A program made the translations under genes and the position numbers. From Gallaecimonas kandeliae (GTDB lineage: Bacteria > Pseudomonadota > Gammaproteobacteria > Enterobacterales > Gallaecimonadaceae): a stretch of 64,000 bases of DNA. This document shows, in pieces, positions 31,022-45,549 of the stretch (position 1 is the stretch's first letter; each line of letters begins with the position of its first letter). The stretch spans positions 1,453,415 to 1,517,414 of the forward strand of contig NZ_CP118480.1 of assembly GCF_030450055.1 (NCBI RefSeq), written 5' to 3'. Under the pieces are notes generated by a model. It was not told where the DNA came from, searched no databases, and saw nothing but the letters and a program-made list of their open reading frames with translations.

Positions 31022-32155
31022 TTAGAACACCAGGTCGACGCCGGCGGACAACACCTTGGCGTCCAGGGCCGAGCCCAGATCGTCGCGGATGTCGTTGAAC
31101 TCCAGCTTGAAGGCGGCGCTGCTGTGGAAGTCCCAACGCAGACCAAGGGTGTGGGTGCTGGTCTGTTCGCGGCCGGCGGCGTAGACGGCCATGATGGGGA
31201 CGGCCAACTGGGGCGGCAAGCCGGCGGTGGACTTGCTGTCGGGCTTGGCGTCGAACTTCTCATAGGTGTAGTAAGGGGTGATGCTGCCGAAGCGGTAGCC
31301 CAGGGAGGCGTACCAGGCGGCGGTCTTGGGGATCACCGAGTTCTTGACGTCGAAGTGGGTGTATTCGGCGTTCAGCAGCCAGTTGTCCTTGTCGATGCCG
31401 AAGCCCAGGCCCCAGAAGGTGCCTTTGTCTTCGTTGGTTTCCATGCCGTCGGCCAGGTCAGCGAGGCCAAGGGCCTGCAGGTTGGTCACCAGGGCCTGCA
31501 GCTGGGCCTGGGTGGCGGCATCCTTGGGTGCGAAGGAAACCTTGGCCTTGGCGTAGGTGCCGCGCAGGCTCAACCAGTCGCGGCTGAGTTCCCAGCTGGC
31601 GCCCATGGCGTCCTTGATCTTGCCGGTACCTTCGACGCCGTTGGGGGACAGGTCCCCGTCGTAGCTGCCGGCGTAGAGCTTGAGGTTGGATTCCCAGTCA
31701 CCGAAGTAGGTGCTGTTGTCCAGGCGCAGGCCTTCGATGGTGTTGAAGGGCACGCCGTAGACGCTCTGGGGCGGGCGCAGCCAGGTGTAGGCGTAACCCA
31801 CGTCCAGGAAGGAGGAGTAGCGGAACAGCGGCGCCCGCAGTTTGCCGGCGTTCAGTTTCCAGTTGTCGTTGATGGTATAGGACAGGTAAGCCCATTCCAG
31901 GGACAGGTTGTAGTCGTCTTCCCCTTTGGCCATGGCCTGGGCCGTGGCGGTGAGGCCGTCGCCGAGGTCGGCCACGGCCTGCATGGCGAACAGGGAATCG
32001 GGCTTGAAGGAGATATCGTTGTCGTAGCCAAGGGCCTGCTCGTCGCTGCTCAGGGTCTGGCCGGCGACGATGGAGGCGAAGCCGTTGAAGCGGACGTCGG
32101 CGGCGGCCTGGCCGCACAGGGCTGCCAGGGCCAGGGCAAGGGCTGTTTTCTTCAT
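31022..32155 (-). CDS. Outer-membrane beta-barrel porin
   Basis: A 377-aa protein with a signal peptide (1-19, ending A-A-A) and a string of amphipathic beta-strands such as L-E-W-A-Y-L-S-Y-T-I and N-W-K-L-N-A-G-K, ending in a C-terminal aromatic residue (V-D-L-V-F), the outer-membrane assembly signal. The overall pattern (F-N-G-F-A-S-I-V-A-G, D-N-D-I-S-F-K-P-D-S-L-F-A-M-Q) is typical of porins in Shewanella-like bacteria that lie beside periplasmic binding proteins. The gene starts 12 bp after the stop of a PstS-like miniprotein, so they are one operon. An anion or phosphate channel role is inferred only from that neighbour. Confidence 0.87.
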   Translation of the reverse strand: MKKTALALALAALCGQAAADVRFNGFASIVAGQTLSSDEQALGYDNDISFKPDSLFAMQAVADLGDGLTATAQAMAKGEDDYNLSLEWAYLSYTINDNWKLNAGKLRAPLFRYSSFLDVGYAYTWLRPPQSVYGVPFNTIEGLRLDNSTYFGDWESNLKLYAGSYDGDLSPNGVEGTGKIKDAMGASWELSRDWLSLRGTYAKAKVSFAPKDAATQAQLQALVTNLQALGLADLADGMETNEDKGTFWGLGFGIDKDNWLLNAEYTHFDVKNSVIPKTAAWYASLGYRFGSITPYYTYEKFDAKPDSKSTAGLPPQLAVPIMAVYAAGREQTSTHTLGLRWDFHSSAAFKLEFNDIRDDLGSALDAKVLSAGVDLVF

Positions 32156-43962: not shown

Positions 43963-44098
43963 GGTGTCTCCAGGGCTGGGGGTTGGCAGGATGGATGTTA
44001 ATGGAGAAAGGCGGCGGCTTCGACCCCGCAGGGGCGCTACCGGCCGCCTTTTTGCCCACTGCCCAGGGCCAGTTCAGCCTGGCCGGGGCGGCGTTGCC

Positions 44099-44515
44099 TC
44101 AGTGGGCTTGGGCGAGGGCGTCGCGCAGGCACTCTGCCTGGGTGCAGAAATGGTGCTGCTCCCCTTCGATGACGGTGACGGCTCCCTTCTGGCGCGGCCA
44201 GCCGGCGGTCACGTCGCCGTCCCTGTCCAGGGCCATGCGGTAGGGGTATTTCTGCATCTTGGACTTGGCGAAGAGCTTGAACACCAGGCCTGGCATCTTG
44301 GAAATGTCGGCCACATAGAGCACCCCGGCCTTGGCCATCTCGTCGTCCTTGGCCTTGCCGAAGGTGTCCTTGACCAGATCGCCGCCGTCCATGTCGGCGG
44401 CGAAGAAAATCACCTTGGCCTGGCCAGGCACGGGCAGGGCCTTATCGAACTGATCCTTCAGTGAGGCGGCGTGGGCGGCGCTGCACAGCAGGCAGGCCAA
44501 CAATAAGATGCGCAT
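44099..44515 (-). CDS. Small periplasmic protein, thioredoxin-fold-like, unknown function
   Basis: A 138-aa exported protein with a signal peptide (1-16, A-H-A). It has K-V-I-F-F-A-A-D-M-D-G-G-D-L, then G-V-L-Y-V-A-D-I-S-K-M-P and Y-P-Y-R-M-A-L-D-R-D-G, spaced like beta-strands of a thioredoxin-like fold, but no CxxC. Relatives carry the uninformative name FAD/FMN-containing dehydrogenase in databases, as far as I recall. AAGGAG precedes the ATG. It lies upstream of the DsbD/ScsB-like gene on the same strand (136 bp gap), hinting at a periplasmic redox or stress role. Confidence 0.65.
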   Translation of the reverse strand: MRILLLACLLCSAAHAASLKDQFDKALPVPGQAKVIFFAADMDGGDLVKDTFGKAKDDEMAKAGVLYVADISKMPGLVFKLFAKSKMQKYPYRMALDRDGDVTAGWPRQKGAVTVIEGEQHHFCTQAECLRDALAQAH

Positions 44516-44659
44516 GGGATCTCCTTGAACATGAGCGCGGCACGGGTTTTTCCAAAGGGCCTTTGGGCGGCCGCTTGGGAGCCAGGTCTAAGGCAACCAT
44601 GGTCAGGCCGGAGCGTCAAGGGCAGGGGAGGTAAAGGACCTGTGGCAAAGGCCAGGCAG

Positions 44660-44745
44660 AAAAAAGCCCGGCAAGCCTTCAATGACGGTTGGCAGCTTGC
44701 CGGGTCCAGGGAGAGAACTTCAATGCACGGGTATCGCATGCCGTG
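44660..44745 (-). ncRNA. Candidate small RNA ending in a strong intrinsic terminator
   Basis: Read on the minus strand: a CATAAT -10 (44751-44756), then a dyad TGCACGG/CCGTGCA (44724-44747) that can form a first hairpin, a short single-stranded linker, and a perfect 10-bp stem CCCGGCAAGC/GCTTGCCGGG (44667-44704) followed by C and six T. No gene on this strand ends here; the next gene upstream (psrA) runs the other way. It is therefore either an independent RNA of about 85 nt or a terminated leader of the gene at 44515. The -35 is weak (TGAACT, 18 bp away). The remainder of the 44516-44892 gap shows no convincing gene. Confidence 0.5.
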
Positions 44746-44833
44746 CACAGATTATGACCAGGGGGGAAGTGCGAAGTTCACAAATTAGAGGAAAAGATTT
44801 TGTGGTTGCTTTTTAATCACTTAGATAAGTGCC

Positions 44834-44862
44834 TTGACAAGTCCGATGAGTAAACATACTTT
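44834..44862 (+). promoter_or_regulatory. psrA-fadE promoter
   Basis: A perfect -35 TTGACA (44834-44839), 17 bp, and a -10 TACTTT (44857-44862). The predicted start of transcription (about 44869) falls inside the PsrA-type operator and 24 bp before the ATG. Confidence 0.65.
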
Positions 44863-44863
44863 T

Positions 44864-44877
44864 AAAACACTTGTTTG
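44864..44877. promoter_or_regulatory. PsrA-type operator
   Basis: AAAAC-ACTT-GTTTG: the inverted half-sites AAAC/GTTT with a 4-bp centre match the Pseudomonas PsrA consensus (G/C)AAAC-N2-4-GTTT(G/C). It lies just after the -10, where binding would block transcription, so psrA and fadE should be self-repressed until a long-chain fatty acid or acyl-CoA releases PsrA. Confidence 0.65.
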
Positions 44878-44892
44878 ATACTGGTGTTTGTC

Positions 44893-45549
44893 ATGGCGCG
44901 CCCCGATACCAAAACCCTGATCCTGGATGTGGCGGAACGGCTCTTCGCAGAGCACGGTTTCAACGACACTTCGCTGCGCCTCATCACCTCAGACGCCGGG
45001 GTCAACCTGGCCTCGGTCAACTACCATTTCGGTTCCAAGAAGGCGCTGATCCAGGCCGTGCTGGCCCGTTACCTGGACAGCTTCATGCCCATGATAAGCG
45101 ACGCCATGGCGTTGCTCCAGGCCGATGACAAGGTGGACATGACCAAGGTGCTCGGCGCCTTTGTAGGCCCCCTGCTGGCGCTGAACCAGCTCAAGCCTGC
45201 CGGCACCGCCACCTTCATGCAGCTGCTGGGCCGCGGCTATACAGAGAAGCAGGGCCACCTGCGCCGCTTTATCACCAACCAGTACGGTGATGCCCTGGGG
45301 GCCATCATGGCCACAGTCCGGAAAGCCACTCCCGGCCTTCCCGACAACGAACTCTTCTGGCGGCTGCATTTCACCCTGGGCACTGTGGTGTTCACCATGG
45401 CGTCCAGCATGGCCCTGAGCGAGATCGCCGAGAGCGATTTTGGCGAGAAGAACAGTATTGAAAGTCTGATCCACAGGCTGGTTCCCTACCTGGCTTCGGC
45501 CGTGACGGCACCCCTGCCTGTGGTTGGCAATTCGCAAGACGCCGCCTGA
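44893..45549 (+). CDS. psrA: TetR-family fatty-acid regulator PsrA
   Basis: A 218-aa TetR-type repressor. The N-terminal HTH reads T-L-I-L-D-V-A-E-R-L-F-A-E-H-G-F-N-D-T-S-L-R-L-I-T with the recognition region A-S-V-N-Y-H-F-G-S-K-K-A-L. The C-terminal domain is the all-helical ligand pocket. It resembles PsrA, which senses long-chain fatty acids and represses beta-oxidation genes in Pseudomonas and Shewanella. The start at 44893 agrees with the promoter; a TTG at 44875 would fall in the operator. fadE follows after 25 bp on the same transcript, so repressor and target form one autoregulated operon. Confidence 0.88.
   Translation: MARPDTKTLILDVAERLFAEHGFNDTSLRLITSDAGVNLASVNYHFGSKKALIQAVLARYLDSFMPMISDAMALLQADDKVDMTKVLGAFVGPLLALNQLKPAGTATFMQLLGRGYTEKQGHLRRFITNQYGDALGAIMATVRKATPGLPDNELFWRLHFTLGTVVFTMASSMALSEIAESDFGEKNSIESLIHRLVPYLASAVTAPLPVVGNSQDAA

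What the first reader, a model, noticed from the sequence alone, without database searches (positions are those of the whole stretch)
44660..44756. Candidate small RNA on the minus strand upstream of psrA
A CATAAT box, a GTGCACGG dyad, a linker and a perfect 10-bp G/C stem with six T line up in the order expected for a roughly 85-nt Hfq-type RNA. The T-run occurs on the minus strand only, and no annotated gene on that strand ends there. It sits back to back with the psrA-fadE promoter, so it could be linked to fatty-acid control, or it could be a premature terminator in the leader of the exported protein at 44515.
Basis: partly seen in the sequence, partly recalled or inferred. Interest (0 to 1): 0.6.

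Follow-up and report, generated by a model that had tools for sequence, protein, structure and literature searches.

The report
Envelope-stress small RNA beside psrA
A short, conserved RNA gene next to a fatty-acid regulator looks like an alarm RNA switched on when the bacterial outer membrane is damaged; it sits where cholera-group bacteria keep a known membrane-stress RNA, but its sequence is of a different kind.

Summary
In detail: 44746-44660(-) has a hairpin, linker and one-sided intrinsic terminator, conserved upstream of psrA in 5 of 5 genus genomes with compensatory stem changes. CATAAT is better read as part of a sigma-E promoter (GAACTT-N15-GTCATA), matching this genome's own rpoE promoter in elements and spacing. 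The same slot, divergent from psrA, holds Rfam-recognised VrrA in vibrios, Rfam RybB in one genome and RybB-seed RNAs in Aeromonas, Photobacterium and Enterovibrio. A strict sigma-E motif lies on the divergent strand at 40 of 110 psrA loci, on the other strand at 0. Best reading: a sigma-E-dependent trans-acting sRNA, positional counterpart of VrrA but not a member of RF01456, most likely repressing outer-membrane-protein mRNAs. Best candidate target is ompA, whose AGGGAG Shine-Dalgarno faces the linker in five genus genomes, a modest signal mostly absent outside the genus. The fatty-acid link is unsupported (fadE pairing -7.5 kcal/mol). Expression is untested.

The parts
44753..44779 (-). sigma-E-type promoter: -35 GAACTT (44779-44774), -10 core GTCATA (44758-44753)
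   Evidence: Only match of GAACTTN{15,16}GTCNNA in the window, 0.05 expected; same elements and spacing as upstream of rpoE in this genome; [AG]AAC[TC]N17-18TCNNA kept in 5 of 5 genus genomes
44660..44746 (-). small RNA, about 87 nt; +1 predicted at G44746, 6 nt after the -10 as in VrrA (Rfam start in L111)
   Evidence: 83-90 nt in the genus by the same rule; conserved at psrA in 5 of 5 genus genomes; start inferred by analogy, not mapped
44724..44747 (-). 5' hairpin TGCACGG/CCGTGCA
   Evidence: two pairs with changes on both sides, but in this register G003 breaks 3 of 7 pairs and forms its own hairpin in a shifted register
44705..44723 (-). single-stranded linker with the presumed seed CUCUCCCUGG (44715-44706)
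   Evidence: CTCTCCCTGG invariant in 5 of 5 genus genomes, kept in L042, L129, L139, L143, varied in L039, L082, L056
44660..44704 (-). Rho-independent terminator: 10-bp stem, 18-nt loop holding CCAACCGTC (invariant in the genus), six T
   Evidence: z -4.0; covariation in 5 and 12 sequences
44834..44862 (+). possible psrA sigma-70 promoter TTGACA-N17-TACTTT (context, divergent)
   Evidence: Read; not listed by the simple scan; the TTGACA block is conserved in the genus
44864..44879 (.). likely PsrA operator AAAACACTTGTTTGAT, about 85 bp upstream of the RNA's -35 (context)
   Evidence: AAACA-N-GTGTTT kept in the genus alignment; similar boxes seen beside many other psrA genes; operator identity recalled
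44893..45549 (+). psrA, TetR-family repressor (context)
   Evidence: NF053516 316.5 bits, over its cut-off of 300
44099..44515 (-). downstream 138-aa exported protein of unknown family (possible read-through gene)
   Evidence: No Pfam or NCBIfam match; like protein in 4 of 5 genus genomes, Peptidase_M2 lipoprotein in its place in G003; export inferred from the N-terminus

Best explanation
The locus encodes a sigma-E (RpoE)-dependent trans-acting small RNA of about 87 nt. When unfolded outer-membrane proteins release RpoE from its anti-sigma factor, RpoE transcribes the RNA from about 44746 leftward to the terminator at 44660. The single-stranded linker CUCUCCCUGG then pairs with AGGGAG-type Shine-Dalgarno sites of outer-membrane-protein mRNAs and blocks translation. 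ompA is the best candidate; TonB-dependent receptors are possible. It does the job of VrrA at VrrA's chromosomal address with a different sequence. Shown by sequence: promoter type, structure, conservation, covariation, the shared address with VrrA and RybB-type RNAs, presence of RpoE and Hfq genes. Inferred: expression, RpoE dependence, Hfq binding, targets, mode of action.
For: Promoter GAACTTCGCACTTCCCCCCTGGTCATA versus GAACTTCCCTTGCATCGCTGCGTCATA upstream of rpoE in the same genome. RpoE 334 bits, over cut-off; Hfq over cut-off. Promoter kept in 5 of 5 genus genomes. Across 110 psrA upstream regions, strict GAACY-N16/17-GTCNNA in 40 on the divergent strand, 0 on the other strand, 0 reversed, mononucleotide shuffles mean 0.55, largest 3; loose form 47, 1, 4 and 7.65. 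Rfam VrrA at the same place in L043 and L046 and in 7 of the 20 named loci given; Rfam RybB in L037. Covariation: 4 of 17 pairs changed on both sides in 5 sequences, 0 in all six slid controls; 13 both-side cells in 12 sequences against 0-2 when slid. ompA in the five genus genomes carries AGGGAG before its ATG; pairing with the linker -15.6 to -22.9 kcal/mol. In G000 it is -18.1, against a mean of -13.9 (sd 2.4) for 44 heuristically chosen window genes, 1 of 44 as low. In VrrA, A91CUCCU96, just before its terminator, is predicted to pair with an rbmC Shine-Dalgarno AGGGAGU (PMC4108314, passages).
Against: No expression data. The promoter patterns were chosen after reading some of these loci, and related loci are not independent. 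A sigma-E-like motif alone is not rare: GAACTTN{15,16}GTCNNAA occurs 3 times in this 3.84-Mb genome, the reversed control pattern 6 times. In helix 1, G003 breaks 3 of 7 pairs in the shared register. On 12 sequences two shuffle measures are not exceptional: pairs with both-side change 33/500, pair types 350/500. ompA pairing is weak evidence: shuffled starts do as well in 68/500 (G002) and 47/500 (G004). Outside the genus 2 of 7 genomes beat their shuffles clearly at the first candidate start (G046 5/300; B. dokdonensis 3/300, at a site well upstream of the start codon), five do not. None of the 26 exact seed complements in G000 outside the RNA was recognised as a porin or ompA start; the exact match at ompA is in G001 only. 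The VrrA parallel is partial: swapping A91-U96 only partly relieved rbmC repression, swapping A91-U93 had no effect, and C100UU102 was essential. The order-wide covariance search (394 genomes) scored only the genus strongly; G023 at psrA was weak (E 0.013) and five other weak hits have no psrA beside them.
Confidence: 0.7

Rival explanations
1. Leader/attenuator: the promoter serves the downstream exported-protein gene, and hairpin plus terminator form a conditional stop in its 5' leader; the short RNA is only the aborted product.
For: Promoter, RNA and gene are collinear, about 145 nt from T-run to ATG. In V. cholerae vc1743 shares its start site with vrrA and can be read through, at a very low level.
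Against: Downstream genes differ: 138-140-aa exported protein in 4 of 5 genus genomes, Peptidase_M2 lipoprotein in G003 and Bowmanella pacifica. No Rfam leader family matches. No anti-terminator was noticed, though none was searched for systematically.
Confidence: 0.12
2. Fatty-acid-linked sRNA: controlled by PsrA and acting on fadE or other beta-oxidation mRNAs.
For: Adjacency to psrA is kept in five genus genomes and several other genera; a PsrA-like operator lies between the two genes.
Against: The operator lies about 85 bp upstream of the RNA's -35, next to psrA; fadE start pairing -7.5 and psrA start -12.2 kcal/mol, both weaker than the window mean of -13.9; VrrA, at the same address in vibrios, acts on outer-membrane proteins (PMC2628432, passages). 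Other beta-oxidation genes were not tested.
Confidence: 0.05
3. A strongly diverged VrrA orthologue rather than a separate RNA family (compatible with the best explanation; concerns descent only).
For: Same address, orientation and promoter class; both have a CUCC-containing linker just before the terminator (VrrA UUAACUCCUAUAC; G010 variant CUAACUCCCUUACUC).
Against: No RF01456 match to the window RNA even at E 10; 64-93 nt against 140 nt; VrrA's long 5' stem and its GCUGCUUUUU stretch are absent.
Confidence: 0.3
4. Chance terminator with no function.
For: Terminator-like stems are common; the scan expects 1.6 by chance in 1.4 kb.
Against: Compensatory changes and an invariant linker in 5 genomes and further families.
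Confidence: 0.03

Closest known systems
VrrA (Rfam RF01456), Vibrio sigma-E-dependent sRNA
   Same: Same slot upstream of psrA and divergent from it (L043, L046 and 7 named vibrio loci; the vc1741-vc1743 gap in PMC2628432, vc1741 being psrA by recall), same promoter class, CUCC-bearing linker before the terminator, OmpA as (proposed) target
   Different: Sequence and length differ; no Rfam match; no long 5' stem; VrrA's ompT-pairing G73CU75 region is absent
RybB (RF00110) and RybB-seed RNAs (MicV, recalled)
   Same: sigma-E-type promoter; upstream of psrA in L037 (Rfam, about 450 nt from psrA) and as GCCACTGC RNAs in Aeromonas, Photobacterium, Enterovibrio, Aliagarivorans
   Different: Window RNA lacks the GCCACTGC 5' seed; its 5' end is in a hairpin. 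In E. coli K-12 rybB lies convergent beside rcdA
MicA (recalled)
   Same: sigma-E-dependent repressor of ompA by pairing at the start region
   Different: Compared only through the Rfam scan, which gave no match

Membership tests
sigma-E-dependent sRNAs | sigma-E-type promoter at the 5' end | tested here: met
   Motif and spacing equal to those upstream of rpoE in this genome, kept in 5 of 5 genus genomes
sigma-E-dependent sRNAs | Transcription depends on RpoE | not testable with these tools
   Needs RNA from strains with RpoE induced or depleted
sigma-E-dependent sRNAs | Represses OMP mRNAs by pairing near the start codon | tested here: inconclusive
   ompA AGGGAG faces the linker in 5 of 5 genus genomes but with modest rank; mostly not seen outside the genus
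VrrA RF01456 | Covariance-model match | tested here: not met
   No match at gathering or at E <= 10
VrrA RF01456 | Location upstream of psrA with a sigma-E promoter | tested here: met
   VrrA itself found there
RybB RF00110 | Model match and GCCACUGC 5' seed | tested here: not met
   No Rfam match; GCCACTGC not found upstream of the window's psrA (L032 not in the list)
Hfq-type sRNA | Rho-independent terminator with a T-run, hfq in the genome | tested here: met
Hfq-type sRNA | Binds Hfq | not testable with these tools
   Needs co-immunoprecipitation; VrrA acts on ompA without a strict need for Hfq

The most novel reading that the evidence does not exclude
The gap upstream of psrA is a conserved home of sigma-E-driven small RNAs across many gammaproteobacterial genera. 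Within one fixed promoter slot the RNA body has been exchanged or remodelled between at least three seed classes: VrrA, RybB-seed, and this CUCUCCCUGG class, which would be a new sRNA family spanning at least two families of bacteria.
Probability: 0.6. Interest if true: 0.66.

Novelty: new variant of a known kind. Interest (0 to 1): 0.55.

Why it matters
It gives bacteria outside the vibrios and enterics a concrete membrane-stress RNA with a predicted promoter, a likely seed and a testable target. It also ties VrrA, RybB-seed RNAs and this class to one chromosomal address. That makes a question testable: do sigma-E small RNAs evolve by keeping the promoter slot while changing the RNA that it drives? 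It would also explain why sequence searches lose such RNAs outside each clade.

Tried and rejected
sigma-70 promoter: the scan of 44000-45400 lists none. Coding sequence: the 96-aa frame 44458-44748 has no Pfam match, and the aligned RNAs carry a 2-nt insertion (G001, G002) and a net 4-nt deletion (G003) relative to the window, which break the frame. Rfam: nothing on the minus strand; the only weak hit (Atu_Ti3, 13.8 bits, E 5.1) is on the other strand beside the RNA. Order-wide covariance search: 11 of 394 genomes at E <= 0.1; the weak hits L076, L078, L079, L080, L081 have no psrA beside them and were dropped. Exact seed complement CCAGGGAGAG in G000: 27 places, one being the RNA itself; a few before candidate starts (a 119-aa protein, an acetyltransferase-like protein by eye), none recognised as a porin or ompA; these proteins were not annotated by a tool. 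Starts of the two porin hits L162 and L163 show no seed match by eye; the third hit, L164, was not read. Exact complement before ATG in the five genus genomes: 33 places, five of them the RNA itself; of 28 others the loci of 26 were read, no gene recurring across genomes. Enteric rybB as part of the same synteny: in E. coli K-12 it is convergent with rcdA, and RcdA shares only a 27%-identical 81-residue stretch at the N-terminal end with PsrA. A search of E. coli genomes with the L037 RybB region found nothing.

Literature: searches listed no paper that by title or abstract describes this RNA or the psrA neighbourhood as a common sigma-E RNA site; one paper holds both words VrrA and psrA (listing only). 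PMC2628432 and PMC4108314 were seen as passages only; all others as listings. MicV, MicA, the RybB 5' seed and vc1741 = psrA are recalled.

Mended on re-check: the VrrA-rbmC parallel was first put too strongly; the passages show that A91-U96 is a predicted contact whose swap only partly relieved repression. Confidence in the best explanation was lowered from 0.74 to 0.70 for that.

Full report
What is there. On the minus strand between psrA and an exported-protein gene the window holds, in order, GAACTT (44779-44774), 15 nt, GTCATA (44758-44753), a TGCACGG/CCGTGCA hairpin, a 19-nt linker, a perfect 10-bp stem with an 18-nt loop, and six T ending at 44660. The terminator folds much better than shuffles (z -4.0, 0 of 200), the whole RNA moderately (z -2.9); the 5' hairpin alone is not remarkable. 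No Rfam family matches at gathering in the window or on this strand at E <= 10. The simple scanner lists no promoter and no terminator here, its loop limit being 8 nt and its promoter model sigma-70.

Conservation. A DNA search of 59 genomes (own plus 58 relatives) finds the element strongly only in the five genomes of the genus, each time at psrA; 40 of 59 have some match at E <= 1, the others short and weak. GTTCTCTCCCTGGACCC in the linker and stem, and CCAACCGTC in the loop, do not vary in the five. With 5 sequences, 4 of 17 pairs change on both sides, against none in six slid controls. In G003 the 5' hairpin has a new sequence: in the shared register 3 of its 7 pairs break, but it folds into its own hairpin in a shifted register.

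Promoter class. CATAAT overlaps GTCATAA, and the upstream hexamer is GAACTT. Upstream of rpoE the same genome has GAACTTCCCTTGCATCGCTGCGTCATA, the same two elements at the same distance. The genome encodes RpoE (334 bits, over the cut-off) and Hfq. The motif alone is not significant genome-wide: 3 matches of GAACTTN{15,16}GTCNNAA against 6 of the reversed pattern. Its weight comes from place and conservation: [AG]AAC[TC]N17-18TCNNA is kept in all five genus genomes.

Related loci. I scanned upstream regions of 110 psrA genes: 30 from genome handles, including the window itself, and 80 named loci, the closest 80 of a capped list. No two share the first 300 nt. A strict sigma-E motif stands on the divergent strand in 40 of 110, on the other strand in 0, reversed in 0; a looser form in 47, 1 and 4, with 7.65 on average in shuffles. 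The patterns were chosen after reading part of these loci, and related sequences are not independent, so this is not a probability. Loci named Vibrio have the strict motif in 25 of 28, those named Shewanella in 0 of 21. Aeromonas shows 0 of 6, but all 6 carry GGAACT...ACTCTATATCTATGCCACTGC, off the regex. Rfam recognises VrrA there in L043 and L046 (together covered the 29 handle loci other than the window's) and in 7 of 20 named loci scanned of 80, and RybB in L037. GCCACTGC stands behind sigma-E-like sequences, some off consensus, in 20 loci (21 listed; L033 dropped as chance). RNAs of the window's type occur in Bowmanella pacifica, B. dokdonensis, Aliiglaciecola and G023; variants in Neiella marina, G046 and G010. 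Together, window-type, RybB-seed or a VrrA-like linker is found in 53 of 110 loci. In the 12 window-type sequences the outer terminator stem shows 13 cells with both sides changed, against 0-2 when slid; two of the five shuffle measures are not exceptional. In 5 of 6 Shewanella and Ferrimonas loci printed, a lipoprotein-like gene begins shortly after psrA's upstream region and no such RNA was seen; the rest were tested by regex only.

Downstream gene. It is a 138-140-aa exported protein in four genus genomes (no Pfam match in the two tested) and a Peptidase_M2 lipoprotein in G003 and Bowmanella pacifica. The RNA therefore does not track one gene, which weakens the leader reading. The VrrA paper reports that vc1743 shares vrrA's start and can be read through at a very low level, so weak read-through here would not be surprising.

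Mechanism. The unpaired, conserved part is CUCUCCCUGG. In the genus, ompA has AGGGAG shortly before its ATG. Duplex energies with the linker are -18.1 (G000), -22.9 (G001), -16.3 (G002), -15.6 (G004) and -16.6 (G003) kcal/mol; shuffled starts do as well in 13, 0, 68, 47 and 17 of 500 in that order. Against 44 window genes, chosen and started by a heuristic, -18.1 would rank second. The G001 ompA was reached by a search for exact seed complements before ATG, which also returned TonB-receptor-like and lipoprotein-like genes, read by eye. Outside the genus the ompA pairing mostly fails (2 of 7 genomes). So OMP repression is the likeliest role by promoter, position and the VrrA parallel, while the specific target is tentative. 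fadE (-7.5) and psrA (-12.2) starts give no support for fatty-acid control.

Known or new. As far as sequence can tell it works like VrrA, RybB and MicA. It is not a member of RF01456 or RF00110 by their models. Whether it is a remodelled VrrA or a separate RNA that occupies the same slot is open. Both have a CUCC-bearing linker before the terminator. In V. cholerae A91CUCCU96 of VrrA is predicted to pair with an rbmC Shine-Dalgarno AGGGAGU, but swapping it only partly relieved repression, while C100UU102 was essential (PMC4108314, passages). I rate it a new variant of a known kind. The organism is probably Gallaecimonas; this is inferred from the lone genus of its family among the genomes searched and from recall, and was shown by no call.

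Noticed in passing
L099, L109, L123, L128, L134, L137, L145 (upstream of psrA): Aeromonas and Aliagarivorans carry an RNA with 5' TGCCACTGCAATTAA behind a sigma-E-like promoter at psrA; Rfam RybB does not reach it at gathering in the three scanned (L099, L109, L128).
   Followed up: partly
L130:1551-1860: Vibrio sp. Of7-15 has a RybB-seed RNA and a VrrA in tandem upstream of psrA, each with its own sigma-E-like promoter, as if by duplication.
   Followed up: partly
L047, L048, L049 upstream of psrA: A long inverted repeat (TGAATAAAGCGGCAACC...GGTTGCCGCTTTATTCA in L047, imperfect in L048) lies a short way upstream of psrA.
   Followed up: no
window 44099-44515 (-): 138-aa exported protein without Pfam or NCBIfam match, standing where G003 and Bowmanella pacifica have a Peptidase_M2 lipoprotein gene.
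   Followed up: partly
window about 31040-32134 (-): A porin-like gene (Porin_4, 28.3 bits) lies in the window; by eye its start shows no seed match to the RNA.
   Followed up: partly
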